DNA from: Marchantia polymorpha subsp. ruderalis | Taxonomy: Eukaryota > Streptophyta > Marchantiopsida > Marchantiales > Marchantiaceae | Direction: 5' to 3' | NCBI GenBank assembly: GCA_037833965.1 | Contig: AP031356.1 | Span: forward strand, 5,664,501-5,728,500 | DNA length: 64,000 nt | Translations under genes and position numbers: made by a program | Part shown: positions 3,437 to 62,103 of the stretch, piece by piece | Layout: the number at the start of each line of letters is the position of its first letter | Numbering within the stretch: position 1 is the first letter of the stretch | Notes under the pieces: generated by a model | What the model saw: the letters and a program-made list of their open reading frames with translations, nothing else | Told to the model about the DNA's origin: nothing | Database searches by the model: none

Positions 3437-3437
3437 A

Positions 3438-9375: not shown

Positions 9376-9411
9376 CGTAGTGCAGTGTAGTGCTAATTAG
9401 GACTTAGAAGG

Positions 9412-9440: not shown

Positions 9441-9828
9441 GGTTCTTTCCCAATTTCGGAAGTGCAGATCAGGAACCCATTTTCTCTGCATGTTTGTGTC
9501 CTTAAGTTCTGTCACCACGCAAGAGGAGTTTCAACTTAGCGTTCCGCATTTTGTAGCTGAAGGCCTTCGGCCGAATGTTCAGAGCTAGTACATTGGTTAG
9601 AGACTTGAGTAGTTCGGAACTGCACCTGCGGGTGACTGCCGATGCTCAGAGCTAGTGACTAGTTAGATACTTGAACAGTTTCGCCCCTACACCTTCGAGT
9701 GTTTCTCTCTGATTGTATACCTTCGGAATTTTTCCCCTGAATGCCAAAGTGAAGTTTTGCTACTTCGTGTAAGCCTTGGTTGTAAATTCAGGTTACGTTG
9801 CAGCAGGTGCCTTCAGGGCAACCCCTGT

Positions 9829-10166
9829 AGTATTTCTGGGAATGACAAGTGCCTAAGAATTCAAACTCTTCAATAGACTGTTATTGTGTTACTGGAATGT
9901 TTCTCAGTGAGTCCTTCAGTGCGGACTTGTGTTCTCTGCGCGTTTTGTGAGTTGAGAGTGTTGTTCACGTCTGAGTGACTTCGATCCGAAGTAGGCAGTC
10001 CAAACCGGGTTTCCTACGCTAGCAGCAAGCTAGCGGAAGTGTTGTAAAAGCCGGAGTTGGGAGTCACTACCCGCAGCTTCGCTGAGTGTACTCTCGAGAG
10101 ACTTTTCCCCCCTGAAATCTTGAGTAGAGGTCCTAACGGATCTCTGGGTTGTGTTTCTGTAGTTTC

Positions 10167-10201
<35 letters not shown>

Positions 10202-10310
10202 GCTGCACTGTGCGACCTCCGAGTGCGCTCTGAGTGGACACTTGCAGTATTTCTGGGAGTGACAGTCGCCTGAGAATTCAAACTCCTCAATAGTCTGTTA
10301 AACGTGACAC
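9829..10310 (+). repeat. Duplicated conserved 3' block of unit A1
   Basis: A block of about 60 bp containing TATTTCTGGGA...GACA, CTGAGAATTCAAACTC and CAATAGACTGTTA occurs at about 9829-9893 and again at about 10245-10310. The same block is present once near the 3' end of nearly every unit in the window. Confidence 0.65.
10169..10198. repeat. (GT)n microsatellite
   Basis: An uninterrupted GT dinucleotide run lies inside the 3' region of unit A1. The related minus-strand unit has a CA run at about 43266-43285 in the equivalent place. Confidence 0.95.
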
Positions 10311-10395
10311 TTTGTACCCTGTGTGTTCCTTTGTCCCTGTGGGTTCGACCTTTCTACCACTATATTGCAGTTTTAGCCTTTAGTGGGTTATTACA

Positions 10396-16500: not shown

Positions 16501-17065
16501 AAATGCTCGACGAGATGCAGTTCCAATACCATAAGAGGAAATCAAGATGCAATTCGCTGAATTCGCGCCTGAAGGGTCGCAATTCCTCGTATGGTACTTT
16601 CAATGGGACCAATTTCCGCACTTTGTCACTTGTCTTGGGCGGCGTTATGTCTTCAATTCGCGTCGTCACGGATAGTAATGCCGATCGATCTCTCTCTCGC
16701 TTCGTCCGTGCTCGCTCAGTATCGCAATGTCGGCGCGCTTGCTTCTGGACCTGCTTTTCCCTCGATGCCCTAGCATTTCCTCTTCCCGCGCCCAGTAGGA
16801 TTCTCGACGCGTGCAAAAGTTGTACGGCCCGTTGTGCATTTCAAATTGATCTTTATGTCTTCGCCGAAGACTCAATTCTTGCATTGTCTAGAAAGGCTAC
16901 GCCAAAGGTCTGAAGATCCGAAGATCTTCGGCCAAAGGCGAATTCTAACTAGTTTTATCATAAATCTTCTATCTTTATCACTTCTTACTCATATGTCTAC
17001 GTTCTACACAATTTTATTTAAGTTTTTGTTAATTTTTGAAGAAAAACAAAAAACTAGGCCCTACA
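13509..17065 (-). mobile_element. Subfamily B terminal unit, complete (3557 bp), probable solo LTR
   Basis: On its own strand the unit starts TGTAGGGCCTAG (at 17065) and ends ATCATTACA (at 13509). A perfect 5-bp duplication CAACA lies at 13504-13508 and 17066-17070. It splits the copia RT just before the catalytic YVDD, and removing the unit plus one CAACA rejoins the copia frame. It contains one decayed long ORF and the AATAAA-hairpin block. Confidence 0.8.
14040..16816 (-). pseudogene. Subfamily B terminal-unit ORF, complete in extent but broken
   Basis: Read from 16816 down, the pieces are 16816-16220, 16186-15893, 15896-15294, 15173-14982, 14969-14733, 14561-14283 and 14276-14040. The first two hold the conserved N-domain: LDFLLWYWN, GPCAGSDGDLLF, a K-x-A-DYKDPKRR stretch, AWQVGFFE, HWARI and FLVNFYR. 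A short acidic and Thr/Ser-rich linker follows, then a coiled coil. The linker is much shorter than in subfamily A and lacks the palindromic repeats. Stops (for example just after HIL, near 16220) and frame changes make it a pseudogene. The function is unknown. Confidence 0.7.
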
Positions 17066-30635: not shown

Positions 30636-31976
30636 TGCGGGCCCATTCGCATGACGTTCTAAGATATGTTGGACGTAAACAGTTGCCACTTCATGAACGG
30701 CAACATGCAGCTAGCAGTTTTGTAGCAAGATGCGTGTTGTAATAAATTAGCCAGAGACTTATATTCAATGCCTCTAGCTTCAAAAGCATAATCACTGCAG
30801 ATTTTATCCTGTCTACCTCTCACACTCACGTAGACAAGAAGACAAATCCATCATCATTGGATTCCACCTTCTCAGTCACTTGATACTACACGCTTTACCT
30901 TCAAACCATTCCTGTTTACTTATCCGAGAACAAGTCGTGAAACGCTCTGTAATCGTATTGCATCTTAAATCAGTTATTGTGATCGATGAGGACAAGTTAT
31001 ATAGTACCAAAAAAGGAGTATCAGCTCACCATCTTCGAGTCCCATCTTCTTCACTTTGATTGCATGTGGATTTCTGGATTTTGTTATCCGATTCTTAACA
31101 CTTTTACCTTCAGAGTGTTAAAAATGGAGGACATGTTTCCGATGGCATGACGATTGGTTGCACGGGCACGTATATCAAGTCGTCAAGTTTCTCTTCAAAG
31201 CATGTGGGCGAACGAGTCCGCACTCATCCCTGTATGTAATTCGAAAGAATATAATTAAAAGATATGAAATATTGTGGTAAAGCAGTTTTTGTTTTTTGTC
31301 GGAATTAAAACATTTTTGAAAAGTAAGTACCATGGTAGCAGTTGTACATAGTAATCGGTACGCAAAAACAGAAAAAAAAGGGAATCTCGGGGTCTAAGGG
31401 AATCGAGGGCAGTCTAGGAGTTTTGAGCTTAGGCCACGGTCGGACGGTTCATGCTGTAGGATCCCCTTCAGACGCCTTAGGCTATAGCTCCTTTGTTGAG
31501 TAGCCTTCGGCGCAAGTAGAAGGAAGTTGATTCGGCTCAAGCTCCTTGGCGAAGGCGCTATCGCGGAAGACATACGAAGCATGTATTACGGAACTCCTTC
31601 GTCGGTGGAAAACGACCTCGTCACTAGACTTCGCCTTCGGCTGTAGACTCCTACGGCCGAAGCACCTTCGGCATTAGCGCCTTCGTTGCTAGTGTCGTCT
31701 TCGTCGTTAGTATTCGCCTTCGGCGGAACCCTAACGGCTCAAGCACCTTCGGCGCAGGAGTGGTTCAGGGAGGAGCCTTCGGCTCAAGGGACTTCGGCGC
31801 AGAAACCCCTGGAGCAAATTGCTGCGGGCGAAGGCATGGGGAGACACGTGTGCCTTCGGCACAAGCGCCTTCGGCGGTAGCATTCCAGGCAGGTGTAGCA
31901 GGCCCACCTGGAGCAGGTTCTCCCACCCTGTTGGAAGTATTGGTAGGACACAGAGTGGAGGCCGCAGCAGAGGAAG

Positions 31977-32888
31977 TTGTGCGGCCCAGTGCAAGACGAC
32001 ACGCCTGAGGAGGAGGAGGAAGTGCAGTCGGTGCAAGGTACACCAACCGGAGTGCTCTGCGAGCAAGTGGTACCACTATTCCGGTACCTTGATCGCAAGG
32101 CGACCAAGTACGGGGATCCTTGCCAGTGTGGAACCTATGTTGAGCTGGTCAGGAATCGGACTCGGATCAAAGTAGCCACGAATCTTGAGTTGATGGCCCT
32201 GGACCATAAGTATCGGCAGCTGGAGGAGCGCTACAATTTTTTGCAGGATCAGTGTACCCTACCACGGAAACTGCAGAAGACGGCGATTCCATTGCGAGAT
32301 GAGATGGTGAGCAAGGCGCAGCGCAAAATTGAAGAGCTGCGTGCGAGGAACGAGACGAAGATCAATTCCAAGCAAGCTCAAAACCGCATTCTGGCAGGGG
32401 AGCTCGTGCAACAGACGCGGGCGTTAGAGCAGAGTGAGGCTGCGAGGAAGGCGGACGAGGAGTTGCTGGGTCGACTGCAATCGTAGTGCGACGAATTGAG
32501 GTCGCAGCGTGTGGAGGCGGAGTTACAATTGGAAGAGGTCGAAGGCCACAAACGGCGTGCGACAAATCGCACGCGGGAGGAGTTAGTTTCGCGGGTTGAC
32601 CAATGTCTTAGAGGTTATGCTCGTTGGGAGATCGTGGCGCAGGAGAGAATGACGTTGTGCGAAATGAAGATACGTGCGACAGCTTTGATGTTTGGCAACA
32701 GTCGGAGTCGGCGGCACGTGGCAAAGCGGTTGGAGTCATTCCTGTCGAGGTCGCGGGACGCCATTGCAAACGTCGAGGCAGAGGTGACCAAGGTGTTGCG
32801 GCGGCTCGGACTGCGTAGGAGAGCAGACGAGTGGACGGGTAGTGAGATAGTGAGTCGTCGGCCGTCTCATAGGAGGCATAGCCGATGA
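31977..32888 (+). pseudogene. LTR-borne ORF (subfamily A), C-terminal half
   Basis: The remaining part starts in an acidic stretch and then has VVPLFRYLDRK, a VELVRNRTRIKV motif, a coiled coil, and the conserved C-terminal block with GYARWEIVAQE and FLSRSRDAI. A TAG at 32484-32486 interrupts the coiled coil where a glutamine codon is one base away. The N-terminal domain is absent: the sequence before 31977 is linker with CCTTCGG repeats and then the LTR leader. TATAAAG plus hairpin follow at 32922-32950. Confidence 0.7.
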
Positions 32889-33441
32889 AGTGTAGTGTTA
32901 GTTAGTTAGGATGTTAGAGTGTATAAAGTAATCCAAGGCGTTGACCTTGGGAGATTTCTCAGTTTCGTAATTGCAGTTCAGAAAGTCGTTTTCTCTGCGT
33001 GTTTGTGTTTTTTGTTGTGTCACCACGCAAGAGTAGCTATAGCTTGTCGAAGTTACTGCATTTTATAGCAGAAGGCCTTCGACCGAATGTTTAGAGCTAG
33101 CGTAGTCTAGTCATGATCCAAGCAAGTTCGGACTTACACCTTCGGACGTTTTTACCTGATTGTACTCCTTCGAGAGTTCCCCCTGAATACCAAAGTGAAG
33201 TTTTGTTAACTTCAGAGTGAGAGTTGGTTGAATTCAAGTTGAGTGTGTTACGCTACTTCAGGCGCCTTCGAGGATAGCCTTCGCAGTATTTCTGGGGATG
33301 ATAGTTGCCTGAGAATTCAAACTCGTCAATAGACTGCTAAGTTGTAACAATGGGACTTTTCTCAACTTAGTTTCTCAGTTCGGATTTCTGTATTCTCTGC
33401 GCGTTTTGTGAGTTGAGTGTGTTGTTCACCGCGTGAGAGGG

Positions 33442-36400
33442 TGTAATGACAGACCAATACCAAAATGGAACATAATGGTACAGATCCGTTCCCAAAAGTA
33501 CAAAAACAACCACAAAAGTCACGATTTGTCACAGAATAACATTCTATTAAAGAGTTTCACTTAGGCCAATGCCACTCCCAGAAGACACTACCCAGCTAGA
33601 GCCGAAGATCCGCAAAGTAGTGCATAACCTCACTCACAACCTGAAACTTTTCCAAACAACGCCTATAGGAATCGCTTGCAACTCCACACTTATATTTCAG
33701 GGGGAAAACTTCCCAGCATCGCATACATCTCAACTCACTGACCCGAATACTCAGACTCAAATTTGCTTAAATCCCAAGGAGCCTCAACTGCTCAGGACAC
33801 TCGAGCCGAATACTCACAATTCCTGATGCGGTAACTTCGACAAACAGGAGCGCACCGTGCCTCAGGCCTGGATCACACACCAGCGCAAAGACACAGTGGA
33901 TACAGATTCACAATCAAGACAAGCCAATTGACAGAAAAGCCCCCCAAGGAAAGAGCCTTGGACCTCTTTATTCACAATGGTAACTCTGAGATATCAACCG
34001 CCTAAGGCGAATCGTTCTCAAGGGCTGTGCCGTTTGATGTAACGGTTACAACATCGTCTGAACTACTCTCTACTCCTAATCTACGCAGCACGTTTACAAT
34101 CTCTACTTCTACATTCTGGCGCGCCTCATTCAATTCCTCTGAAAATGAATTAACTAACTCTACAAACCTGTTTGTGTCCTGCGGATCCGTTGGTCTTTGC
34201 GCTCATCAGCCGTCGCTGGAGTTGATCTAGCTTCAACCACTTCACCGAATCCAATCTCCACATCGCAAATCCGTTCAGGCACTTCTCTAACCGCAATTTC
34301 AACACGTCGGTTGAATCCTCCTGCAGTTGACGGTAGGTCTCCTCTGCCTTTTCCATTCTCCTTTGCGACTCTTCCAATCTCATCTCCGCCTTCCCTAACT
34401 GCTCTTGTAATCGTTCACAGTCCGATTCAACCTTTAATTCACATTCGACCTCCGAAGACTTGGCCGACTCGCAATCTGCCAATTTCTTGGCCCAATCCGC
34501 TAACTCCTCCTCATTCTTCTGGTTTCCCGCCAACAGACTTGCTGATAGCTCCTCCGCACATTGGAATTCCATCTCATACTTCGCTTCAATCTCCAAAATT
34601 TTCCTACCAAGATCTTGCTCCGCCGTCTTCGTATCTTCGAGTTTGCCCCAAAGTTCTTCGGCAAAACTAGCTTCTTCGGCTCTTTGAGCTTTCAATGTAG
34701 CAAGTTCCTCGACATGTTTCTTCTCTCCCTTCTCCGCAGTAACGATCAGCCGCTCCGATCTTTTGCTTGCCGCCTCGTAAGTTTCTCTGGATTTCTCCAA
34801 TCTCACCACCAAATCCACTGTTTCCTTCTGGGTATACTCATTGGAGATACGAAGTCCTCTACAGGTCTCCTCTAGCTCTGCACAGCGCCCGGATTCCTTC
34901 TCTAGATTCAGCTGCAGTACTTCGCACTCAATTTCCTTCTTCCGAAGCTGGGCTTCTCGCTTTCGTACCAATGCAGTTGCGGAATTCCACTTCCTCTTTA
35001 CTGCAACTGCTCTCTTGAGCTTCGTCCTATTCCTAATCATTGGTACATAGAATCCTGGCTCCTCCGTTACAGCATGTAGTTCCATTGTTGAAGTACTTGG
35101 AACGGGAAGAGATGGCTCTTCCCGTCCAAGTACTTCAACAATGGAACTACACTATCTTGCAAGAATTTAGGAAATGTAATTTCTAATGTCTTCACATCTT
35201 CGCCCAAAGTCTTCTTCCCTTCTTCGGGTCTCACCGAAGATGTCGGCAGTGTAATGCCCTCGGCTTCTACCACCGTGCCTCCTACCCTTGCGACAACTTG
35301 TTCCAGAATCTCCTCGCTCAAAGTGAACTCCTTCTCCAGGTCCTCGTTCATCTTCATCTGTGGTGTCTCTGCGCCTTGCGCCGATTGCGTCTGCTCCGAA
35401 GATAGAGAAATCGGACTTACCAATTCCGTTCTATCGTTTCAAAGGTTCTGTCGGTATGTCTGCCAAAACTTCAAGTGACACCTCCGAAGGTACTTCTATC
35501 TCCACAGGTCGCATTACCTCGCCAGTTGCGACTTCCGATGTGTTTACAATTGGTGCCACTGTCTTCTCCACACTGCTGTCCGACACCTCAACTGTCACCA
35601 TCCTCCGTTTTGCCCTCTTCTTTGGTCTTGTGCGAGCTCTGTGCTGCCTGGCTCCACTTACATCCATATCCATCCTTCTTACTTCGTGGGTCAATTCCTC
35701 CTCGTCGTCACTCACGACCTTCCTTCTCTTTGCCAATCGTCTCTCTGGCTTCTCCTGCCTTTGAACCACGTTCACCTAAAGTGGTCCTCGAGCTGTTGTT
35801 TGTGGTGGGATTGAGGGGGGTCGGTTCTCGTCTTCAGTCCCTTCACTAGACTCAGCTGTCAAGACTTCTCGCTCTTTCGGAAATCGCTTCTCCTCCTCCC
35901 TCGTAAGCAACCCCATCCCTCGATAGAAATTAACCAGAAAGGAAGTGATGTGGCTGCTCAGAGCTCCCGTCCACCGGAAGCCTACGTTTACCCAGACAAG
36001 ATCGTGAAAGATCCTTGCCCAATGTACTAGCTGTCCATTCAATATGCGTTCAAAGAATCCTACTTGCCAGGCCGTCACATAAGTCGTGCGCGCCGGCCGT
36101 AAGATGTGCATGATCCCCAACGCAATCGCCCTTCTCTTCGGATCTTTGTAATCGACAGTCTTCCATCCATTCGTTCCCTGTCTTCCAGACTCGAAGAGAG
36201 GCCCGTAAGAGAATTCTTCGCCGCGTGTAAGTCCTACGCTATTCTTCTCAAATAGCAAATCTCCTTCGTTGCCCGCACAGGGTCCCAGTACCGTCGTTCA
36301 ATGTTCGATAGTTCACAGCATGGAATTACCGCGAAGCTCCTCGCCTTCGTCCGTGCTCTGGTCCATTAACTCCTTGCAGATACTCGTTGAGACGCAATTC

Positions 36401-36948
36401 CAATTCCACAGAAGGAATTCAAGCCGCAGTTCCCTCAACTCGCGTCTGAAGGGTCTCAATTCCTCGTAAGGCACCTTCAAGGGAACCAATTTTCTCACCT
36501 TCTCACTCTTCTTGGGCGCCATGTCTTCAATTTGCGTTTTCGCTAATCGCGGGTTGGCTCGATTACACTTCCTCTCTCTCTCGCTCGTTCTTGCTCGATA
36601 TCGCAATGTCGGCGTGAAGTCTCCTCGTATTGCCTTTACCTTTGAAGCCCTAACATTGCCTTCTCTCGCGCCTCATAGAACTTCCGACGCGTGCGAACAT
36701 CGTGTGGCCCGTTGCATGATTTGAAATTGATTGCGATGTCTTCGGCGAAGACGTAGCTCTTCGTACATCCATAAAAGGCTGCGCCGAAGACACGAAGATC
36801 CGAAGATCTTCGAACGTAGACGAATTTTCACTAATTCTATCATTTCTCCTCAGAATCTGCTCATTCTAACTCTAACAACTACTTTCTAAACAAATATCTT
36901 TAAGTTTTGTTGATTTTTAAAGAAAAACAAAAAAAACTAGGCACCACA
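33442..36948 (-). mobile_element. Nested subfamily B terminal unit (3507 bp)
   Basis: Read on its own strand, the ends are TGTGGTGCCTAG (at 36948) and GTCATTACA (at 33442). The flanks GAGGG and GAGTA share three bases, so the duplication is imperfect. The host sequence on both sides belongs to one LTR (TGTTGTTCACCGCGTGAGAG continuing as TAACTTCGGTTTGACG). The unit resembles that at 13509-17065 throughout. Confidence 0.75.
34150..36606 (-). pseudogene. Subfamily B terminal-unit ORF in the nested unit
   Basis: In order on the minus strand, pieces 36606-36313 and 36258-35776 hold the conserved N-domain (LEFLLWNWN, LLFEKNSV, DYKDPKRR, AWQVGFFE, HWARIFHDL, FLVNFYR). Pieces 35775-35431 and 35423-35067 hold the linker with VVPLLKYLDGK. 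Piece 35085-34150 is a 311-residue open coiled coil ending near SAKTNGSAGHKQ. It is less damaged than the copy at 14040-16816, with long open stretches but several frame breaks. An inverted repeat around 35080-35150 (AAGTACTTGGAACGGGAAG / CTTCCCGTCCAAGTACTT) disrupts the YLDGK region. Confidence 0.7.
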
Positions 36949-37413
36949 GAGTAACTTCGGTTTGACGAAGGTACCGCATCCGAAGTAGGAAGTCCAACCC
37001 AAATGCAGTGCACTAGCAGTGGCTAGTGACAAGGTTTAAGCAAGTTCGGAGTTGGGTGACTACCTGCAGATCCTCTTAGTGTACTCTTGGGAAACTTCCC
37101 CCCCTCCCCTCTCCCCCCCTTGAATCTTAAGTGGAGGTCCTAACCGACCTCTGAGTTGTGCATTTACAGTTTCATGTGTGTTTGGGGTGTACTACGCTGC
37201 ATTGAGTGTCCTTCGAGTGACCTCCGAGTTGAGCACTTGCAGTATTTCTGGGAGTGACAGTAGCCTGAGAATTCAAACTCCTCAATAGACTGTTAATACA
37301 TGACATTTTGTACTCTGTGTGTTGTCTCTGTCTCTGTGGGATCAATACTTTGCTATTATACTGCAATTTAGCCTTGGGTGGGCTATCACATAGAAGATGA
37401 CTTACTTTCTTTT

Positions 37414-37431
37414 TGGTGCCGCTGCCAGGGA
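37414..37431 (+). promoter_or_regulatory. Primer binding site (putative)
   Basis: TGGTGCCGCTGCCAGGGA, 23 bp after the LTR end at 37390, resembles the TGGCGCCGTTGCCGGGGA-type primer site used by several plant gypsy lineages. Minus-strand DNA synthesis would start here. Confidence 0.6.
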
Positions 37432-37474
37432 TAGTGCGTCAGCACCGGAGTACGCTTGCAGAAATTCTCGGTGA

Positions 37475-38142
37475 ATGTCGACGGAAGAAGGTGTGGGTAA
37501 ATTAAGTGCTAGGGCCACACGAAAACTCCGTCGAGATTCGGAAAAAGCCGTAGAAGAAGAGCGGCGCTATAAAGAGAAAACTAAAACATTGGAGTCTTTA
37601 CCAAAGCTTAGGTCGACAAAAGCTACTGACGGAGAGCTACTCAATTCACCATATTAGGCCTTTGTGCTAACGGTACTATTAGAGATACCTTCCGCGGAAT
37701 CTTTTTCAAATTTAGGCCAACCTGACACTGATCCGTTGTTAGACTCACCAATGGCCGACGGTCAAGCAAACCCTCGCCAGGTGTTCTCTCAACCTTTTAC
37801 GAAACATTCGTATCCGAAGTACAAGGAGAGAGGAGACGATGATGATGCGGACTCGTATATCAAACTTTTCGAATCAGTGTCCATTACCAACCGCGAAACC
37901 AGTGATGACGATAGGTTGCGGATCTTCCCCAGCCTACTGCGCAAGAAGGCACGCAGTTGGTATAACCACAAGAGTACCAACCCAAATGGCCTACAGATGT
38001 GGGCTCAGCTAAAGGAGAAGTTCTTGCGGCGGTTCCGCGAGCTTAGCTACGACAGTCGGATGTTGACCAAATTGCGCAACCTCCAGCGAGAGAGGAAGGA
38101 AAATCTTTGCGATTATATAGAGAGATTCCAGGATCTCCTTGG
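37475..38142 (+). pseudogene. gag: gypsy gag, 3'-truncated
   Basis: The capsid precursor starts at ATG 37475 after the primer site. One frame runs to the LTR junction with a single TAG at 37655-37657. The Retrotrans_gag landmarks are present: an ADSYIKLFE stretch, LRIFPSLLRKKARSWY, FLRRFRELS, and QRERKENLCDYIERFQDL. At 38139-38146 the gag sequence joins 3' LTR sequence at the shared octamer TTGGGGTG, which explains the internal deletion. Confidence 0.8.
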
Positions 38143-38348
38143 GGTGTACTACGCTGCATTGTGTGTCCTCCGAGTGACCTTCGAGTTGAGCACTTGCAGT
38201 ATTTCTGGGACTGACAATAGCCTGAGAATTCAAACTCGTCAATAGACTATTAAAACGTGACACTTTGTACTCTATGTGTTGCCTCTGAACCTGTGGGTTT
38301 GACCTTTTGCTACTATACTGCAGTTTTAGCCTTTGGTGGGCTAGTACA

Positions 38349-38476
38349 AAGCTTCAAAGTGTGAATTTGGCAAGTCAGAAGTAGATTACTTAGGTCATAG
38401 AGTTACAGCTGGAGAAATCCAAGTGATGAGTGAGAAGATAGATGTTATTTTAGATTATGAAGATATTAGATTATAA
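38349..38476 (+). pseudogene. gypsy reverse transcriptase fragment
   Basis: A short frame with KCEFGKSEVDYLGHRVTAGE matches the segment of gypsy RT after the catalytic site. It lies between two partial 3' LTR ends (38139-38348 and 38508-38710), so it was left behind by recombination. It shows that the giant-LTR element once carried pol of the gypsy type. Confidence 0.7.
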
Positions 38477-38710
38477 AGATAGATTATGAAGAGATTCCAG
38501 GATCTCCTTGGGGTGAACTACGCTGCATTGTGTGTCCTTCGAGTGACCTCCGAGTTGAGCACTTGCAGTATTTATGGGAGTGACAGTAGCCTGAGAATTC
38601 AAACTCCTCAATAGATTGTTAAAACGTGACACTTTGTACTTTGTGTGTTGTCTCTGTGGGATCGATCCTTTGCTGTTATACTGCAATTTAGCCTTGGGTG
38701 GGCTATCACA

Positions 38711-39891
38711 AATATATAAAAAAAATGTCACAATTATTTCTGAACTATTATTTTGATCGGATAATCTGATTTAGACTTGTTTCAAAATTTGTGGTTAAGT
38801 CAATCAGCTGAAGTTGATAAGACAAAAGGAAAAGTCATATAATACAAATTACATAAAAAAACTCCAAGAGTATTATACAAGAAGACAATATGATAACTTC
38901 AAAGTTTTCTGTATACTTGCATGGACTATCCGCACATGAAGTTGCTCTTCTTACTTTATGTACGCAATTTGAACGTGCGCAAAACTGAAAGTCTGCAAGT
39001 GCTGATAAAAAAACATTTTTTAGAGGAGATAAGATAATTTTAAATAGCAAGAGATATCTATCCCCGTGCTATAAAGTGTTGCTGCTAGAACTATACAACG
39101 CGGCCACTTGATTCTTGTTTAGAGGCGAGGCAGCAATCAGAGTCGAGCATGGTAAGTTGTGGTGCCGGGAACGAGGAGATCGTCCTCAGAGACAAGTTCC
39201 GCAACAGATGCTCGAAGTTCTTGGAAGACATGTGCTTCAAGAACACCAAAGAATGCGCAAGTCATGAACTGTTTGATCAGGTTTACGACGCTGTGTGCAG
39301 CCTGTGAGAAATGCAATCAACAAGCATCGATATGATCAGAGGATGCTGTGCATATGCAGACTTCACGTTTAGGTACCATACAGTCGAGCACAAAGTCAAA
39401 GTTGCCCATATTACCATTGTGAAATTGCAAGATTTCAACGTTATGTAACAAACTATGAGAGAGTTAATATGGTAGTGATATATAGTTTTTGTTGCATATA
39501 GTTTCACTTAATGAAAGCTGTGAAAGACAATTGTTAGAAGTGGGCACATCTTTGCGTTAAGTTTGGCTTGTTTGAAGCACTGACTTAGAATTTTTGATGT
39601 CTTTTGTACTTTTGCACATCATTTTGTGAAACAAATGAAGGATTGAAGAATTTTATTAAAAGATTCAAGACTAAAATTTGAAAGATTATAATCTAAGACT
39701 TTACATATGAAATGTATAAAAAACTTCACAATTATTTCTGAAGTATTTTTTTGATCAGATAATTTGATTCAGAGTTGCTTAAAAATTTGTGGTTAAGTCA
39801 ATAAGCTGAAGTTGATAAGACGAAAGAAAAGTCATAAAGTACAATTTACATAAAAAATCTCAAAGATAACTATACAATAAGACAATATGAT
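38711..39891 (+). repeat. Right end of the terpene synthase array
   Basis: This continues the unit broken at 31272: an AATATATAAAAA stretch, TGTCACAATTATTTCTGAACT and the CTGATTTAGACTTGTTT block, then a truncated gene copy and another upstream region. It is diverged from the three homogenised units. It ends at 39891, where a TGTTAGAATATG sequence begins. Confidence 0.75.
39149..39419 (+). pseudogene. Truncated terpene synthase copy T4
   Basis: This is a 5' fragment with the same breakpoint as T1-T3 but independent damage: the codon-7 frameshift is absent, and a TGA replaces an arginine codon at about 39305. It belongs to the older, unhomogenised part of the array. Confidence 0.8.
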
Positions 39892-40639
39892 TGTTAGAAT
39901 ATGCGCTTCCAGAAGCCTAACGTGGGAACTCCCACCGCTATCTAGTGAACTTCCAATACTCTCTAGAAATATATAGTAAACTATGTTAAGTAGTGACTAA
40001 CCAAGTGAAGATGTATTGTTACTGTGAACCGAGATTTTTTTTTTGTGCAAATATTTATGTCAATATAAATAACATATATTTATGTTAATACATGTGTATT
40101 CATTATTCAAAATTACGAATTTAAAGTGACTACCTCGCTGGCAAACATGATAGTCCACTTACATACAATCGAGCCCAACCCACTGATGAGAAAATCCAGG
40201 TTGACGCTTACGTGCATTCACTAATCCCAACGCTACAGGCTCGACTCGAAGAACTAAATGCTCTTTGAGTTTTGTCAACTCTATACCCTCTCCAAATGGT
40301 AACCCTAGGCCGACGGCTAAATATAATAAACACTAGAAGACATGACAGCTGTTGTGCAAATATATATCGCCATACACTCTACATCGCTGACATGCTACTC
40401 ACACACACATATGGATACGAGAGTGTACACACTCAAATGTACCACAACTAGCCCCCCTCCCCCCCCCCTAATTGGCGGTCAGGTCCCCTTGATTCTAGGT
40501 AGCTTTATCTACAACTACATGTTATACATTTTCATGGATACGCGAACTAGTAGGCCGGATGCTATGTCGCCCTATCGTTAGTCGCCTATCTGCAATTCAT
40601 AACATGCAAAGATCAAGTCATCTACCCCCCTGAAGTACA

Positions 40640-40865
40640 TCAAGGATAAATCCATTGTCCAGCTGGAACAACATCGATAGGTGGAGTCAGGCAAGACATG
40701 TGTCATGCCCTAGTATACCTATCACACACCAACATACGGGCCATTTGATTAGCTGATCCACATAACATGCACCTTAAGCCAACACGTACTATTGCTAAAC
40801 TTGGGTCTATATTATCATCCACGTTTGGGAGGTGACATGGCGCACAATTGCGTACATGATCATTC
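40640..40865 (-). pseudogene. PHD-finger-like relic, second copy
   Basis: The minus strand shows CLTPPIDVVPAGQW and a preceding CGSANQMARM-like stretch, related to 18601-18774 and its upstream 70 bp. Key cysteines are lost and there is an in-frame stop. Confidence 0.45.
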
Positions 40866-41075
40866 TAAACAACACTTCCACGATACTAGAGAAAGACGAC
40901 TCTCTCACTGGTTGCTATGCAACATCCTTCAAAGAATAGGTACGGATCTCCGTACCCTCCTTTGAACCAATCTCCACTTGAAAAACTCCTCCAACTACAT
41001 GGGCTGCAAGTCTAGCAGACACTCTCATCATGTTCCACGAACTCCACGGATGACGAATATCTCGCTTGAATTACG

Positions 41076-41460
41076 GTGAATTTATATGTTATTTTCTTGA
41101 ATGAATATCGATTCTTTGGAGTATGTTGCATGCAACCAGTGAAAGAGTCGTCTTTCTCTGTTGTGCCTATAGAAAAGGATTGGGAGCCATTGATTGATCC
41201 CGAGATCACAAGAGGAGAGAGACAACAGTTAACAAAATTCCTACGTGATTATAGGAATTGTTTAGCCTTCGACATAAAGGAGTTAGATTCTTTGATTGGA
41301 CCAGTCATATGGATAGAGTTGGCTAGTGATACGCCAATCTTTCGTCGTCCCTATCGATATATATTGATATGGGAAGATATTTGATTTGGAGTAGGACGTT
41401 AAACCTACTAGAGGGTGGATTAGTGGAGTGGTTGCATATGTCGATTCTATACACTTTGCG
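41076..41460 (+). pseudogene. gypsy pol fragment (protease-RT spacer)
   Basis: The frame contains DPEITRGERQQLTKFLRDY, CLAFDIKEL and TPIFRRPYR, the signature of the segment just before RT in many plant gypsy elements. It continues in another frame with an LLEGGLVEW stretch. No RT core follows. Confidence 0.6.
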
Positions 41461-41590
41461 AATGGTGACCCTAGGCCTATGGCTAAATATAGTAAACATA
41501 AAAAACATGACACTTTGGATCTATATATAAGATAATTTTTATGACTGTAAAGGCAGGCTCAATCAGAGACAGAACACTAATTTTTGAACA

Positions 41591-41602
41591 TGATATCAAA
41601 GC
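41591..41602 (+). promoter_or_regulatory. copia primer binding site (initiator Met tRNA type)
   Basis: TGATATCAAAGC differs at two positions from TGGTATCAGAGC, the usual copia primer site, and follows directly after a sequence ending in CA. Confidence 0.65.
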
Positions 41603-41608
41603 AAAGGT

Positions 41609-41856
41609 GATGACACTAGTATAAGAAAAATAGTGAGCTCTGCTCCATATCTTTGAGGCGAAGTTTTGTTGATGACACTAGTATAGAAAAAATAGTGAGC
41701 TCTGCTCCATAACTTTGAGGCGAAGTTTTGTTGATGACACTAGTATAGAGAAAATAGTGAGCTCTGCTCCCTATCTTTGAAGCGGAGTTTTGTTGATGAA
41801 ACTAGTTTAGAGAAAATAGTGAACTCTTCTCTTATTCTTAGAAGTGAGGTTTTATT
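41609..41856 (+). repeat. Four tandem 62-bp repeats in a copia leader
   Basis: Units start at 41609, 41671, 41733 and 41795, each beginning GATGA(C/A)ACTAGT and ending GTTTTGTT or similar. They lie between the primer site and gag. The fourth unit is the most diverged. Confidence 0.9.
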
Positions 41857-41885
41857 TATTTTTTCATTGTGCAATTTGCCTCATC

Positions 41886-43029
41886 ATGGACAAAGATGGC
41901 AAGATGATGCTTGAAAGAGATAGTAACAAGTTGGTGGAAGAATCCAACTATCACGTTTGGCGACTGAAGATGCGCTTCATGCTTAAACGATTCGACTTGT
42001 GAGAAGTGACTGCAAACAAAATCAAAACAATAGGGAGATCACCTATCACATGTCATAGTAAATGGCATACTTTTGAACAAGATCCAGTTGACAAAATTGA
42101 AGAACATAGCACATGCAGCAATTACAATGTCTGTTAGTGATGATCTTGTGGATTTAGTGTCTGAAAATGATGACCCAGCTGATGTTTGGCAAGTGCTAGA
42201 AAGAAATTTCCAGTTGGGTGATCAAGGACAAATACTTCTGTTGTCCCAGCAGCTACAATCATTCAAGATGATGGAGGGAGCATCGATTACACATTACATC
42301 TATCAAGCAAAGGAGTTTTAGAACAAGTTGTCATCGGTGGGAGAGGCAGTATCTGACAAGACTATGGCTTCAAAAGTTCTTAATGGATTGCCACAATCTT
42401 ACAAAGGAGTTATTCAAGGCATTGCTACTTTGGAAGAGCTTACTTCCTTTGAAAAGACTATCTACAAACTTCTCATTGAAGCACACAGAATGGAGATGAA
42501 AATTCAACTAATTGGAGAAGAAGATGCAGCTCTAGCTTTATAGTGGCAATGTGCACCAATAAGACGTGAGTATGGTAAAAATTCTCATTTCATTGGTGGA
42601 GGATTCGGTAATCGTCGATACATGGGAGGAAGGAGCAAAGCTTCACAATTTTAGCAATATCATCAAATTCGTGAACATAACAGTCTTACTTGTTGGGTGT
42701 GTGACAAGGAAAAGCACTTTATTTCGAATTGCTTACAGAGGAAGCTTGAAGGAGGATCTTTGAGAGAGAGACGTGAGTCGATCAACTCCATCATAGATGA
42801 CGGAGAAAAATTACATTACAGTGATGTGATTGATCACCATAACCACAAGTGGTATATGGATAGTGGTGCTTCTAACCACTTGACAACAAATAAGGAAGCT
42901 TTAGATGCGATGAAGCTTGAGAAGAGAGTTACTGTGATGGCAGCTAGAGGAGAATAGTATAAAATTGAGGGACGTGAGAATGCTCACGTTTTCAGCAGAC
43001 AGTTATGGAATAAAGCTTGACAATATTCT
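41886..43029 (+). pseudogene. Ty1/copia gag and protease
   Basis: A copia gag starts at ATG 41886 (NYHVWRLKMRFML motif). It stops at 42000, shifts frame, and runs on at 42073-42321 and 42328-42543 (UBN2-type gag: DVWQVLERNF, LSQQLQSFKM). A zinc knuckle CWVCDKEKHFISNC lies at about 42684-42725, and a protease motif WYMDSGASNHLT near 42852. The gene is split at 43029 by the unit 43030-47909 and continues at 47915. Confidence 0.8.
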
Positions 43030-43993
43030 TGTAATAACCCACCAAAGGCTAAAACTGCAGTATGGTGGTAAAAAGATCGAACCCACAGGGACAGAGGCAA
43101 CACACAGAGTAAAAGTGTCACGTTTAACAGACTTTTGTAGAGTTTGAATTCTAGGCGACTGTCACTCCCAGAAATACTGCAGTGCTCGACTCGGAGGCTC
43201 GACTCGGAGGAGGATCTCGACTCGGAGGATGCTCGGAGGATGCACGGTACAGCGTGGTCACTCAACACACACACACACACCCACACACCTGAAACTGGCA
43301 AAAAGCACAACTCGGAGGTCGGTCAGGACCTCCGCTTCGGATTTCAGGAGGAAAGTGTCTCAAAAGTTCACTCAGAGGTTCTGCAGGTAGTGCCTCCCAC
43401 TCCGGCTTTTACTGCCCTTCCGCCAGGAACTAGCGTAGGGTACCCGGACTGGACTTCCCACTTCGGAACGAAGCCTCTTCATACGCCGTGGACGTCACCC
43501 TCGACTATCACACCAAACGCAGGGAGTGCAGACCCGACTGAGAACTTAACTGAGACACGATCCAGTAACACACACACAACCTGAATTACAAACCAAGGTT
43601 TACACGAAGTAATAAAACTTCACATTGGCATTCAGGGGAAACTTCCCGTAGGAGTACAATCAGGATATGTCACTCGAAGGAGTAAGGGGGAACTGTTCAA
43701 GTCTCTAACTCGCAGCCGGCTCTGAGCATCAGAAATCACCCGCAGGTGCAGATCCGCACTACTCAAGTCTCTAACCGGGTGCTAGCTCTGAACATTCAGC
43801 CGAAGGCCTTCAACTTACAGCATACGGTAACTTCGCTATGCTGCAGCTTCTCTACGTGGTGCCAGGACCAAAATGCACAAACACGCCAAGAAAGTGAGTT
43901 CCTGATCTGCACTTCCGAAACTGGAAGAGTCCCAAGGCAAAACGCCTTGATCTACTTTATACCCTCAAAGATCCTAACTAGCACTACGCTATC

Positions 43994-46549
43994 CTATCTA
44001 CTACTCGCAGCATCTGCGCAAAACCAAACTATTCTACTGCACTCGGCTGATCCGGTGCTGCGCCTCCTGCGCGCCGGACTGCTCCGCTCGCTGTCTCTAC
44101 CTTGCCAGTCTTCCGACCGGCTGCGCAACCCCAGGCGTCGGAGCGCTGTGGTGACTTCCGACTGTAAGTGCGCCATAGTGTCGCGCGCACCCGACAAGAA
44201 GGTTTCTAATTTCCTCGCCACTCGCCGCCGACTCCGACTGTCACCCTCCGTCAATGCCGCCGCCCGAAGCTCGAACTCCCTGAGTATGATCCTCTCTTGA
44301 GCTGCCACCTCCCAATGGGCGTATCCTTTTAGACAACGAGTCACCTGTGTCGCCAACTCTCCTCGTGCCCTGCAGCTGCTCTCCACCTCTGCCAGCTGCA
44401 TTTCTGCTTCCGCACGTTGTGCCCTCAAATCCGAGCACTCGGATTGCAAGTTGCGCAACAACTCCTCATCCTCCTTGCGGGCTCTTTGACTTTCTTCTAA
44501 GGCGCGCGTCTGGCGCGCAAGCTCGGCTGCTAGGACTTGGTTTTGTCTCCGCTCCTCCTGCAATTCCGACTCGATCTTTGCCCGTATTAGCTCGGCATCC
44601 GTCTGACTTTTCGTTGCCGCATCCTCCCTCTGCTGCTGCAAGGCTTGGTATAGCTTCTGTGTGACCGCCAGGTGTTGTCGGAGGGCGGTGTTCCTATCCA
44701 CATATACTCCGCACCTAGAGGCCCACTTTGCCACCTTGCTCCTCGTCCTTCGCCTGATAGTCTCCACATAAGACTGCGGTTTTAAAGCACTCGCGTATTT
44801 GGATGTCTTGCGATCCAGATATCGCAGGAGTGGAACTATCTGTTCGCACAGCACCCCTGTTGGCGTTTTCTGCACCGAATCCGCTTCCTGCTCTTCCGAG
44901 CTCGTCTCATCCTCAATCTCGAGGATTTCAGTCGCCACCGAATCCCTTGGCGACTCCCTGGAACTGTGGTGCGCAGCAGCTTCCGCTGCGACTGCTGCTC
45001 CACTGCCTGCTAAAATATCCAGGGCAGTGGGAGATCCCACTGCTTGAGCCCCTGTTCCGGCTCGATCTTCGGTTTCCGAAGGGGTCGACGCCGCAGTGAC
45101 TCTTGTCACTTTTGCACCGCCCGCTTCTGCTGCCTGTCCTTCCGGCGCAATCTGCGCAGAAGGTGTCTTCGCTGAAGGTGCGTCCGCCGAAGGCGTCTGC
45201 ACACTGGTCGTCGGCCCCATCCGTCTCGCAGTCGGCGAATCCGGCCGACTCTCTGTTGCCCGACTCGCAGTCGGCCGACCAGCAGTTGTCCGACAGGGAG
45301 TCGGATACACCCTGCGCGTCTTGACCCCACTTGGTCTGCTTGCTGGTGGCGTTTTCCCAGAAGTGCCTTCCGCCGAAGACGACCCTCTGAGGATTGTTGG
45401 CTCGTCAGCCAAACTCTCTTCTGCTCCCGGCCTGCTGTCCGGTTCAACGCGCCGTTCAGTTGGCCTTCCTTCCGCTTGTCGGCCTTCAGTCATCCGACTC
45501 GCAGTCGGCCGACTGTCAGTCCGTCCATCTCCTCCCGAAGGCCGTGGTGCCTTCTGTGCAGAGGTATCTGTCGTCTTCCCTAGAATCTGCGCGATTATCT
45601 CCTCCTGTGTGAGATTCCGCCGGGTCGGAGTTCGCCCGGTCTCCTCAGTACCAGTTGGCATTTTGCGTGCCCTCTGTTTTGGTCGACTGTGAGGCTCGGG
45701 GGTGGGCCGACCACGAGTCGGTGCAGCTGGCACTTCCGGCTGCCTGTCCTCAGGTCTCTCATCCCACTTCCGCTTTCGCGGAATGCGCTCACTTCGACGT
45801 TCTTCTGCTGCTCTTGCTGGAGCCGGAGCCGGAGGCGTACTGGCAGGTTCCTCGTCCGGATCCGTGTCTACTTCGGCCTCCCTCGAATATCTCCCTGGAT
45901 AGTTCCGGGTCAGCTGCGGAAACCGTGTTTTCTCAGCATTTGTCAAACATCCCATCGCCCGATAAAACACGATCAAGTAAGGCGAGAGATGATTGAGGGT
46001 TCCTCCTTTCTCTTCTTGCGCATGTTGGCGCGTCACCTTCCACAGGAGCCGTGCCCAATGCACTGGAGCTCCTGACAACACTAGCTCCACAAATTCTACC
46101 TGCCAACCATGCATGTAAGCGGTCTTGGTCGGCTGCAATATCTGCAGCAATGCAGTCGCGACATTTCTCCGCAATCGATCTTTGTAATCCCGTGTCCGGA
46201 AACCGTTCTTGGGATGCCTGGCAACTTTGAAGAGCTCATTGTAGGAGACTTCTTCCTCCTGGGACACCTTCACGCTATCGGCCTCGAAGAGGAGATCCCC
46301 TTCCTCGCCGGCACACCTGCCCAACACCTGCGCCCAGTTGCAAATGTCCCATCTTTCTGGATGTGGACGGAATCCGCGAGAGGGCTTGTGTCTCTCCTGC
46401 AGATACTCGCGCACCATCTCCGGACATGTCCAGTTCCACCCCCACAGGAGAAAATCGAGCTTCAGCCTCAGCAGCACATCTTGAAATGCGCGTAGACCGA
46501 TCTGCGGCACCCTGAGTGGAGACACTCGCAGGTGGGGAACCTTCGACAT
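43994..46549 (-). CDS. Intact LTR-borne protein: novel N-domain, repeat linker, coiled coil (851 aa)
   Basis: The function is unknown. The frame is open from 46837 (947 codons). I take Met 97 of that frame (46549) as the start because homology with the copies at 6483, 49855 and 63617 begins exactly there. Residues 1-220 form the conserved domain: LDFLLWGWN (31-39), NWAQVLGRCAG (71-81), GFRTRDYKDRLRR (116-128), HGWQVEFVEL (148-157), HWARL, FYRAMGCL. Residues about 230-560 are a Pro/Ser/Thr/Arg linker with NLS-like basic patches and repeated ADSRP/TASR-type units from palindromic DNA. IVPLLRYLDRK lies near 569, followed by a VETIRRRTRSKV motif, a long coiled coil, and a helical C-terminus. No membrane segment or catalytic motif is visible. 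Confidence 0.75.
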   Translation of the reverse strand: MSKVPHLRVSPLRVPQIGLRAFQDVLLRLKLDFLLWGWNWTCPEMVREYLQERHKPSRGFRPHPERWDICNWAQVLGRCAGEEGDLLFEADSVKVSQEEEVSYNELFKVARHPKNGFRTRDYKDRLRRNVATALLQILQPTKTAYMHGWQVEFVELVLSGAPVHWARLLWKVTRQHAQEEKGGTLNHLSPYLIVFYRAMGCLTNAEKTRFPQLTRNYPGRYSREAEVDTDPDEEPASTPPAPAPARAAEERRSERIPRKRKWDERPEDRQPEVPAAPTRGRPTPEPHSRPKQRARKMPTGTEETGRTPTRRNLTQEEIIAQILGKTTDTSAQKAPRPSGGDGRTDSRPTASRMTEGRQAEGRPTERRVEPDSRPGAEESLADEPTILRGSSSAEGTSGKTPPASRPSGVKTRRVYPTPCRTTAGRPTASRATESRPDSPTARRMGPTTSVQTPSADAPSAKTPSAQIAPEGQAAEAGGAKVTRVTAASTPSETEDRAGTGAQAVGSPTALDILAGSGAAVAAEAAAHHSSRESPRDSVATEILEIEDETSSEEQEADSVQKTPTGVLCEQIVPLLRYLDRKTSKYASALKPQSYVETIRRRTRSKVAKWASRCGVYVDRNTALRQHLAVTQKLYQALQQQREDAATKSQTDAELIRAKIESELQEERRQNQVLAAELARQTRALEESQRARKEDEELLRNLQSECSDLRAQRAEAEMQLAEVESSCRARGELATQVTRCLKGYAHWEVAAQERIILREFELRAAALTEGDSRSRRRVARKLETFLSGARDTMAHLQSEVTTALRRLGLRSRSEDWQGRDSERSSPARRRRSTGSAECSRIVWFCADAASSR
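45215..45510. repeat. Palindromic repeat cluster GACTCGCAGTCGGCCGACT
   Basis: At least six variants of AGTCGGCCGACT, often preceded by CCGACTCGC, lie in the linker part of the ORF. The motif differs from those of the other units but sits in the same protein region. Confidence 0.75.
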
Positions 46550-47914
46550 TGCGTTGCCTGCACACACAAACGTTCTCCCTTTCGCTCGCTCTCTCACAAT
46601 CGCCACTGCGCGTCGGCCGCTCAAGCACTGACTGCTCACACTCTCTTCGCTCACACTCAAGATCGCTACTCGCAATTCTCTCCAAGGTCTGTCAAGATCC
46701 TTGCGCAACTCGTCTCCGCACTCTCTCCTCTCACTGCAGGTCGCTCCGCTCTTGCGCGTAATCTTGGAAACTGGAAATCGCAAAATCAAGAATGAGAGAA
46801 TGAGACTGGAGCGCAGTCTTTTCTTCTCTGATTTCAAGAACGTCCAACGTTCTTACTGGTTCCAACGTACGCAGCCGGCTATACGGCCTAACAGTTCGCC
46901 CTTTGCATGCGCGAATTCACGTCTCCGCACTGCGCGCATTCGCATGCGTAAATGTTGAATTCTCCCGCCGCCGCCACCTTCCGGACTCGAGTCCGCCGCA
47001 GGGTATACGTCGGCCATGTTGTATTTTCCTAATCCGTCCCTCACCGGAGGCGTGTCGCCGCTGGTGCGTTCCTTATCCGTCGGCGCCTTGCTGGAGGCGC
47101 ACATCTAGTCGGAGCGAATTACGCCGGCGCGCAGTCGTACCGCTTATTTTGTCCTTTATGCCTCGTCCATTGCTGCCGGCGCATATCCGCCAGCGCAACT
47201 CATGCCAGCGCATCCGGCCGTCAGCGCCACGTTGGAGGCGTACATCCGACCGGCGCCTTCCTTCCATGAACAGCCGCCAAAGGCGCTTTCGACTCTGAGT
47301 TGGTTTCCTCCTATGAGCGCGTGATTCCGCCGAAGGCGCATCGCCGAGGGCGTACGGGAATCCTTTCCGGCTGTGAACCCTAGCGCGAACGGCGCATGTC
47401 CGGCTACGAGTTTTCCGACGCTCATAACTTCTCCGTCCCTGATCCATCTCCGACGCTCTTGGGCTCGTTAGAACGAGCGTCTCGAGCTCTTTCTAATGCG
47501 ACTGCAACCAACTGGATCTACCGTGTATCCCGATCGTTATGAAGGTTTTCCCTTCCCGCGCTAGCGGCGCATCGCCGAAGGCGCACTCATGGTCGGACGC
47601 CTTCAGAGGTCCGGGCCCTTCTCCTGACGTCTTTAGCAAAACCTCCTCCTGAGGTGTCTGCGCCGGAAGCGTAGCTTCCTTATACGCTGGAAGCGCGTGA
47701 GTAGAGACACCTCAGAAGAGGAGCTTTTGCCGAATGCGCCGAAGACATTGGCGTTGGTACATCCGACTACGTGATTCTTCGTGTCCTCGTGACGATCTCA
47801 TCAATCCACTCTTTTTAACGTACCCTTTTCTAACTACAAACACTGCTTCGGTACTAGTTTTCTAAAATTGTTTAAATTCTGCAAAAAAAACAAAAAGTGT
47901 GTTACCACAATTCT

Positions 47915-61519: not shown

Positions 61520-62103
61520 TGTGGTAACACACTTTTTGTTTTTTTTTGCAGAATTTAAACAATTTAGAAAAGAAGTACCGAAGCAGTGTCTGTAGTTAGG
61601 AAATGGTACGTTAAATAGAGTGGATTGAGGAGATCGTCACGAGGTCACGAAGAATCGCGAAGTTGGACGTACCAGCGCCAAATGCCTTTGGCGTCTTCGG
61701 CAAGATCTCCTTTACTGAGGTGTCTCTACCCACGCGCTTCCAACGTTTAGGGGAAGTACGCTGCCGGCACAGACACCTCCGGAGGAGATCTGGCTAAAGA
61801 CGTCAGAAGCCGGCAAGGACCTCTGAAGGCTTCCGACCATGAGTGCGCCTTCGGCGATGCGCCGCTAGCGCGGGAGAAAAACCTTCATAACGATCAGGAT
61901 ACACGGTACTTCCAGTTGGTTGAGATTGCATTGGAAAGAGCTCGGAACGCTCGTTCTAACGAGCCCAAGAGCGCCGGGGATGGATCAGGGACAAAGAAGT
62001 GATGAGCATCGGAAAACTCGCATCCGGACATGCGCTGTTCGCGCTAGGGTTCACCGTCGGAAAGGACTTCCGTACGCCTTCGACGATGCGCCTTCGGCGG
62101 AAC
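61520..62103 (+). mobile_element. 5' end of an A2-like terminal unit
   Basis: It starts TGTGGTAACACAC and matches the 5' end of the unit at 43030-47909 (read on its strand). It is inserted into the sacsin-like fragment after CAACT and is itself interrupted at 62104. Confidence 0.75.

What the first reader, a model, noticed from the sequence alone, without database searches (positions are those of the whole stretch)
31273..47909. Giant LTRs that encode their own long protein
Seen: ORF-bearing units of 3.5-5.4 kb have TG...CA ends and perfect 5-bp duplications (GAGTG, CAACA, ATTCT). In the 31273-38710 copy, such a unit is followed by a primer-site-like sequence and gypsy gag, and its 3' terminal 200 bp is repeated at the far end before an AATAT duplication. 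Known: genes inside LTRs are rare (retroviral nef and sag are examples). Inferred: the units are LTRs, mostly solo, each carrying an internal gene of about 850 codons. Every solo LTR would keep that gene, so the protein could outlive the parent element.
Basis: partly seen in the sequence, partly recalled or inferred. Interest (0 to 1): 0.88.

Follow-up and report, generated by a model that had tools for sequence, protein, structure and literature searches.

The report
Plant retrotransposon LTRs carrying a gene
In the liverwort Marchantia, a family of jumping elements carries an 851-amino-acid protein gene inside each of its two end repeats, and natural selection has kept that gene working while the elements copied themselves.

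Summary
The units are LTRs with perfect target duplications: GAGTG, CAACA, ATTCT, and AATAT around the gag-bearing copy. The genome is Marchantia polymorpha, judged by protein names. Among the 53 best ORF copies 15 same-strand pairs lie 10,654-10,665 bp apart; of nine pairs checked, seven have perfect outer duplications and two run into a further PBS leader. Young elements have near-identical LTRs, a tRNA-Asp PBS, a PPT, gag-protease, a TAG, and RT-RNaseH-integrase.

The gene is real: Ka/Ks is 0.22-0.38 between insertions, with no detectable constraint between the two LTRs of one insertion, and indels avoid it. Of 20 ORF-bearing LTRs checked, 12 are solo with perfect duplications.

The only TATAAA-type motif lies just 3' of the ORF, so the gene probably sits in U3, as sag does in MMTV. 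That is inferred; no RNA was examined. Function is unknown: no Pfam match above cut-off, no fold match, no membrane segment by hydropathy. One recently moved element lacks half the gene. The literature searches listed showed no plant case.

The parts
43030..47909 (-). Solo LTR of the young family, 4880 bp, TG...CA
   Evidence: ends and ATTCT duplication; same length and order as paired LTRs of full elements
43994..46549 (-). LTR-encoded gene, 851 aa plus stop; N-terminal conserved domain about 1-215, low-complexity middle, C-terminal part about 560-835 that looks like coiled coil by eye
   Evidence: start codon supported by an in-frame stop 36 nt upstream in the C7 copy and by frame-breaking indels just upstream
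43956..43961 (-). TATA box candidate (LTR position 3949), followed by a short hairpin-like sequence; proposed U3/R boundary just 3' of it
   Evidence: only TATA[AT]A match on the sense strand of this LTR and of both LTRs of the C2 and C7 elements; role inferred, no RNA data
43030..43955 (-). Proposed R-U5; fewest substitutions of any part of the LTR, though it has several indels
   Evidence: 0.84% substitutions against 1.2-3.4% elsewhere in C versus C2 LTR2, with 13 gap columns
43025..43029 (+). Target-site duplication ATTCT, left
47910..47914 (+). Target-site duplication ATTCT, right
5028..10395 (+). Solo LTR of a second subfamily, 5368 bp, GAGTG duplication; single TATA[AT]A at LTR position 4385
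6483..8903 (+). LTR gene of that subfamily from the family-conserved start; the C-terminal part continues in another frame from about 8824
13509..17065 (-). Diverged-subfamily solo LTR, 3557 bp, CAACA duplication, gene broken
31273..38710 (+). Degraded element: 5' LTR (31273-37390, with a nested unit), PBS-like site, gag piece, remnants of LTR 3' ends; AATAT duplication
33442..36948 (-). Nested diverged-subfamily LTR-like unit with broken gene (pieces 36492-35875 and 35085-34150); no perfect duplication
37414..37431 (+). [quoted passage not shown]
   Evidence: young-family PBS and tRNA gene
37664..38120 (+). gag piece
   Evidence: PF03732
48554..51214 (+). 5' part of another LTR unit with a broken N-domain (49855-50499, 2 stops); its 3' end was not found (the end given is roughly where other sequence begins)
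61520..64000 (+). LTR unit, entered at 62104 by a unit-A-like LTR that runs off the window

Best explanation
The units are LTRs of a Ty3/gypsy (no chromodomain found, tRNA-Asp-primed) retrotransposon lineage of Marchantia. SHOWN: the LTRs are about 4.87 kb, and in full elements both copies carry the same 851-aa gene, sense to gag-pol, at LTR positions about 1360-3913. The gene has been under purifying selection across transposition cycles and drifts after insertion. Many copies are solo LTRs that still hold the gene. INFERRED: solo LTRs arise by LTR-LTR recombination, as usual. The gene lies in U3, because the single TATAAA-type motif is just downstream of its stop. In the genomic RNA it would then be the last gene, 3' of pol, and reverse transcription would copy it into the 5' LTR too, as for MMTV sag. 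It would need a spliced or otherwise subgenomic mRNA, or a second promoter. INFERRED, weakest step: the protein is a nuclear accessory factor of the element (no membrane segment, basic clusters, coiled-coil-like C-terminus), for example a trans-activator or anti-silencing factor that can act in trans.
For: Full element C2:7710192-7730593: LTRs 4869/4869 bp, 22 differences, GCCTC duplication, PBS, PPT, gag, pol, ORF in both LTRs with the same stop. C7 element: LTRs 4873/4872 bp, 2 substitutions and 1 indel, both ORFs intact at 851 codons and 1 residue apart, gag-PR frame 942, pol frame 946. 15 pairs at 10,654-10,665 bp, 27 of 53 ORF copies. Outer duplications perfect in 7 of 9, the other 2 followed by a PBS leader. 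PBS of the C7 and C3 elements complementary to the 3' 18 bases of tRNA-Asp with CCA. Ka/Ks over the full gene, nine between-insertion pairs of five copies: 0.225-0.384; LTR1 versus LTR2 of C2: 4 synonymous and 8 nonsynonymous, p 0.51 against no selection. Indels in three LTR comparisons: 1 (6 nt) inside the ORF, 26 outside, 25 of these not multiples of three. ORF without stops in 34 of 53 and 47 of 53 best copies. Old elements of diverged subfamilies show the same order, ORF, LTR end, PBS-gag, pol, INT, LTR start, at C1:0.59 Mb and C1:4.09 Mb; a second ORF match in the 3' LTR is seen at C1:0.59 Mb.
Against: One recently moved element (C3:2020407-2031863, LTRs 2829 bp and identical, AAGGC duplication) has lost the first 469 or so codons of the gene in both LTRs, so the gene is not needed in cis and might be dispensable. 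One LTR used in the selection test (L025) reads GTG at the start codon. No transcript, protein or promoter was examined. AlphaFold2 models of the N-domain are poor (mean pLDDT 48.5 and 52.3) and gave no fold match, so function is a guess. A promoter upstream of the ORF is not excluded.
Confidence: 0.85

Rival explanations
1. The gene sits in R or U5, not U3: the promoter is near the LTR 5' end, so the gene is the first ORF of the transcript, and a solo LTR could make a full mRNA for it.
For: The first 100 bp of the LTR are similar between subfamilies and hold A/T-rich TATA-like strings. ORF-first order would ease its translation.
Against: No TATA[AT]A there in the C, C2 or C7 LTRs, while one lies 3' of the ORF. 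It would give gag a leader of about 5 kb containing an 851-codon ORF. The region after the TATA has the fewest substitutions of the LTR.
Confidence: 0.15
2. The units are a DNA transposon with a transposase-like gene and TG...CA ends.
For: In the window the units mostly occur singly with short duplications.
Against: Paired near-identical copies flank PBS-gag-pol-PPT. No transposase family matched the LTR ORF above its cut-off.
Confidence: 0.01
3. The ORF is an open frame by composition only, without a selected protein.
For: G+C-rich sequence; one young element lacks half of it.
Against: Shuffles reach at most 281 of 952 codons; Ka/Ks 0.225 with p 3e-15 for C versus the nested copy; indels avoid it; the N-domain is alignable over subfamilies at about 40-65% identity to that of C.
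Confidence: 0.02
4. An ordinary host gene captured by an LTR in one family and carried as a passenger.
For: Marchantia annotation lists pieces of it as genes.
Against: Present in several diverged subfamilies (Ks above 1) at the same place; selected during transposition; of 112 relatives listed 90 are named, all Marchantia polymorpha, and 22 are unnamed.
Confidence: 0.05

Closest known systems
MMTV sag (betaretroviral superantigen gene)
   Same: A gene in the LTR, mostly in U3; solo LTRs keep it (490 of 527 shortlisted sag contigs lacked other retroviral genes; passages of PMC4667437).
   Different: Animal retrovirus, superantigen. No sequence relation showed up in the Pfam scans, but no direct comparison was made. 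The gene here is 851 aa, in a plant Ty3/gypsy element.
Athila/Calypso/Diaspora and Tat Ty3/gypsy elements of plants
   Different: Diaspora has one gag-pol ORF and no other lengthy ORF. LTRs of Ogre (over 5 kb) and BAGY-1 (4.2 kb) are as long, but the passages read report no gene inside them.
Additional ORFs (aORFs) of plant LTR-retrotransposons
   Same: Extra gene of unknown role in most copies of a family (PMC7264820, first of three parts read).
   Different: Those are described in the internal region, most often between pol and the 3' LTR; here the gene is in the LTR and is therefore doubled and kept by solo LTRs.

Membership tests
Ty3/gypsy LTR retrotransposon | TG...CA LTR pair with 5-bp target duplication | tested here: met
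   C2 GCCTC, C3 AAGGC, 7 of 9 further elements, the other 2 not testable because another PBS leader follows
Ty3/gypsy LTR retrotransposon | tRNA primer-binding site and polypurine tract | tested here: met
   PBS 18 of 18 to tRNA-Asp(GTC) of this genome in C7 and C3, 17 of 18 in C2 (the mature 3' end is set by the acceptor stem plus CCA, ARAGORN's 73rd base being the first C); GAGGAGGGGGGCA before the 3' LTR
Ty3/gypsy LTR retrotransposon | gag, and pol order RT-RNaseH-integrase | tested here: met
   Pfam order in the 946-aa pol; gag matches
Chromovirus branch of Ty3/gypsy | integrase chromodomain | tested here: not met
   none in the Pfam scan of the 946-aa pol at E up to 1
Tat/Athila branch | position in an RT tree | not tested
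   no tree was built; the PBS type fits; the closest named pol proteins are of Riccia sorocarpa, up to 76% identical over part of the query
sag-type LTR gene (works like) | gene inside both LTRs, in U3 | tested here: inconclusive
   inside both LTRs: met; U3 rests on TATA position alone
sag family (member of) | sequence homology to MMTV sag | tested here: inconclusive
   no sag family appeared in the Pfam scans; that Pfam holds a sag model is recalled, and no direct comparison was made
Env-like aORF | between pol and LTR; transmembrane segment | tested here: not met
   gene is in the LTR; highest 19-residue hydropathy 1.22
Plant transposon protein family PF20167 (suspected from memory) | Pfam match | tested here: not met
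   not among the families matched by 52 members at E up to 10

The most novel reading that the evidence does not exclude
Solo LTRs are not dead scars here: a large reservoir of intact U3-encoded genes, with copies on all nine contigs, makes a protein that acts in trans on its parent elements (activating them or protecting them from silencing), so that LTR-LTR recombination removes gag-pol but keeps the helper gene, and helper-less deletion derivatives such as the C3 element can still move.
Probability: 0.22. Interest if true: 0.88.

Novelty: new variant of a known kind. Interest (0 to 1): 0.7.

Why it matters
LTRs are ordinarily non-coding (so stated in PMC4667437); in the sources read, sag is the clear exception, in an animal retrovirus. 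Here a plant Ty3/gypsy lineage holds a large, selected gene in each LTR, in a leading model plant. It offers a reason for some giant LTRs, changes what a solo LTR is, and would explain many 'hypothetical protein' models in the Marchantia annotation (90 named relatives). The selection pattern (constraint between insertions, none seen within one) makes the role of the gene in transposition directly testable with RNA data.

Tried and rejected
DNA transposon: rejected on the paired LTRs. Coding start further upstream (the 952-codon frame): rejected because 1-, 1- and 2-nt deletions fall there in the nested copy and a 2-nt insertion in L025, and an in-frame stop lies 36 nt upstream in C7. Short-LTR form as the main active form: considered, rejected because 39 of 40 other pol copies have the full-type LTR at positions 601-900 (one was ambiguous, 6 of the 46 others were not examined; this stretch lies 5' of the ORF and does not show the ORF intact). 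Fold of the N-domain: two low-confidence models, best PDB match E 3.3, useless. Profile search of solved structures: one chance-level hit, E 7.9. Pfam: weak matches below the curated cut-off only, for example Extensin_1 to the low-complexity part of P0004. A splice acceptor just 5' of the start (TTTGTGTGTGCAG in the young family) was looked at over 19 copies; other subfamilies have only a loose pyrimidine stretch and AG there, so it stays a hint. Relatives in other liverworts could not be searched: G000 has no relatives here and the other genome collection holds prokaryotes.

Selection numbers: one search lists all pairs run. Pairs with saturated synonymous sites (Ks printed as inf, ratio printed as 0.0) carry no weight, and one pair (C-terminal part, B versus L011) gave 0.52. 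For the solo test I took 20 of the 53 ORF copies, from its first 26, leaving out the window's own, two C1 copies and three copies with stops, so the share without stops among them is biased upward. Of the 20: 12 solo with perfect duplication (8 of the 12 without stops; two of the 12 read by eye), 1 with a probable duplication and an altered start, 1 with neither duplication nor PBS/PPT, 3 followed by a PBS leader, 1 preceded by a PPT, 2 with an end not at the expected place.

Full report
Observation. Unit ends and 5-bp duplications were found again by script: 5028-10395 (GAGTG), 43030-47909 minus (ATTCT), 31273-38710 (AATAT), and 13509-17065 minus (CAACA). The ORF at 46549-43994 has 851 codons. 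Its open frame of 952 codons is far above the 281 maximum of 300 dinucleotide shuffles of the same LTR. The 31273-38710 copy has a PBS-like site, gag (PF03732, E 2.6e-12) and repeated LTR 3' ends.

Organism. The 15 proteins most like the ORF all carry the name Marchantia polymorpha subsp. ruderalis. The genome is 241 Mb in 9 contigs. The identity is inferred from these names.

Full elements. A genome search with the ORF gave 53 scored copies out of 13,234 first-look candidates, all 53 at 96% identity or more, 34 of 53 without a stop. One pair, on contig C2, was fetched. It is an element with two 4869-bp LTRs (22 differences), a GCCTC duplication, PBS, PPT, gag, pol, and the ORF in both LTRs with the same stop at codon 365. 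A solo LTR of the same family sits inside its gag with a CTGTC duplication. A second element, on C7, has LTRs of 4873 and 4872 bp with 2 substitutions and 1 indel. Both its ORFs are intact at 851 codons and 1 residue apart, with open frames of 942 (gag-protease) and 946 codons (RT-RNaseH-integrase). Its 5' LTR is preceded by another PPT, so it is part of a chain and its own duplication cannot be tested. Searching again with this ORF gave 53 scored copies, 47 without a stop. Among them are 16 same-strand pairs 8-14 kb apart: 15 at 10,654-10,665 bp, involving 27 of the 53 copies, and one at 13,014 bp. At nine such places I read the outer ends: 7 of 9 have perfect 5-bp duplications (6 by script, 1 by eye, its LTR start differing by a base) and the other 2 run into another PBS leader. 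The 48 listed pol copies are all 99-100% identical with 946 open codons. Four of the 48 have a listed ORF copy on both sides and one on one side; both lists are capped, so these are lower bounds. [quoted passage not shown] ARAGORN calls that tRNA in both loci tested, and the end was set by the acceptor stem, since ARAGORN includes one further base. The C2 element matches at 17 of 18 and the window's degraded copy at 16 of 18.

Old subfamilies. Nine loci carrying gag were read. At C1:0.59 Mb and C1:4.09 Mb the ORF, LTR end, PBS-gag, pol, integrase and LTR start lie in one line although the ORF protein is only about 48-64% identical to that of unit C. At C1:0.59 Mb the ORF match recurs in the 3' LTR; at C1:4.09 Mb the 3' LTR is interrupted after its start. 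The other seven are fragments, nested, or carry parts of this order. The gene in the LTR is thus old within the lineage.

A selected gene. Between insertions the gene is constrained. Over the full gene, nine pairs of five copies give Ka/Ks 0.225-0.384: C versus the nested copy Ks 0.12, Ka 0.027, ratio 0.225; C versus C2 LTR2 0.241; C versus L025 0.384. The binomial p for the first is 3e-15. L025 reads GTG where the others have the ATG. Between the two LTRs of one insertion there are 4 synonymous and 8 nonsynonymous changes, p 0.51 against no selection; with 12 changes this test is weak. In three LTR comparisons (C2 LTR2, nested and L025, each versus C), indels inside the ORF number 1 (6 nt) and outside 26, of which 25 are not multiples of three, including some just before the start codon. 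So selection acts on the copies that transpose, starting at the Met used here.

Anatomy and mechanism. The only TATA[AT]A on the sense strand of the C LTR and of both LTRs of the C2 and C7 elements is at 3945-3950, about 34 nt after the ORF stop. It is followed by a short hairpin-like sequence. The part after it has the fewest substitutions of the LTR, though several indels. If transcription starts there, the gene is in U3, is the last gene of the genomic RNA, and is copied into both LTRs by reverse transcription. This is how most of MMTV sag lies (passages of PMC4667437). How a U3 gene gets translated here (spliced mRNA, second promoter) was not shown. A promoter upstream of the ORF remains possible.

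The protein. No Pfam family above its cut-off, no useful PDB sequence match, poor AlphaFold2 models of the N-domain, no fold match. It has a conserved N-domain with 8 of its 13 Trp, a Pro/Ala/Arg-rich middle with basic clusters, and a C-terminus that looks like coiled coil by eye. Its highest 19-residue hydropathy is 1.22, so no membrane segment is expected. Relatives: 112 listed, 90 named, all Marchantia polymorpha, 22 unnamed. The pol has relatives in Riccia sorocarpa at up to 76% identity, but no Riccia protein appeared. LTR genes may be missing from annotations and the search needs shared 5-residue words, so this is weak evidence for acquisition on the Marchantia side. A nuclear accessory role is my guess.

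Solo LTRs. Of 20 ORF-bearing LTRs examined (chosen as told in Tried and rejected), 12 are solo with perfect duplications and 8 of these 12 have no stop. The gene therefore persists after loss of gag-pol. Whether it is expressed there is open. One young element (C3:2020407-2031863) moved recently without the first half of the gene, which suggests help in trans or dispensability.

Novelty. Searches of the open-access library for genes in LTRs and for Marchantia LTR elements gave listings in which I saw no plant case; I read passages or sections of eight papers. The library lacks most subscription journals. A review of additional ORFs in plant elements (PMC7264820, first of three parts read) places them in the internal region. 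I rate it a new variant of a known kind.

Noticed in passing
window 21009-30635 (+): Four 359-aa ORFs at an exact 2849-bp spacing; the one tested matches TRI5 (terpene synthase, E 9e-14), a tandem array of terpene-synthase-like genes.
   Followed up: no
C2 (L027-L028), C3 (L030-L031) and C7 (L072-L073) elements: gag-protease and RT-RNaseH-integrase are in one frame separated by a single TAG with the context TAG CAA CTA in all three, which looks like the leaky-stop context of tobamoviruses (recalled).
   Followed up: partly
G000:C3:2020407-2031863 (L030-L031): Recently inserted element (LTRs identical over 2829 bp, AAGGC duplication) whose LTRs lost positions 724-2759, including the N-terminal half of the LTR gene.
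   Followed up: partly
G000 C7:0.19-0.22 Mb, C4:3.41-3.44 Mb, C9:5.36-5.39 Mb: Chains of three ORF-bearing LTRs at about 10.66 kb per step, as LTR-internal-LTR-internal-LTR; too regular for separate insertions. Only part of the C7 chain was read.
   Followed up: partly
G000:C1 (5.59 Mb contig): ORF and gag copies with equal scores recur three times each about 0.34-0.41 Mb apart, as if a large block of this small contig (perhaps a sex chromosome) is amplified.
   Followed up: no
window 60893-61558 (+): A sacsin-domain ORF (PF25794, E 4.9e-37) is cut by the LTR that starts at 61520.
   Followed up: no
window 41546-41855: Tandem repeat with a 62-bp period just before copia-like sequence.
   Followed up: no
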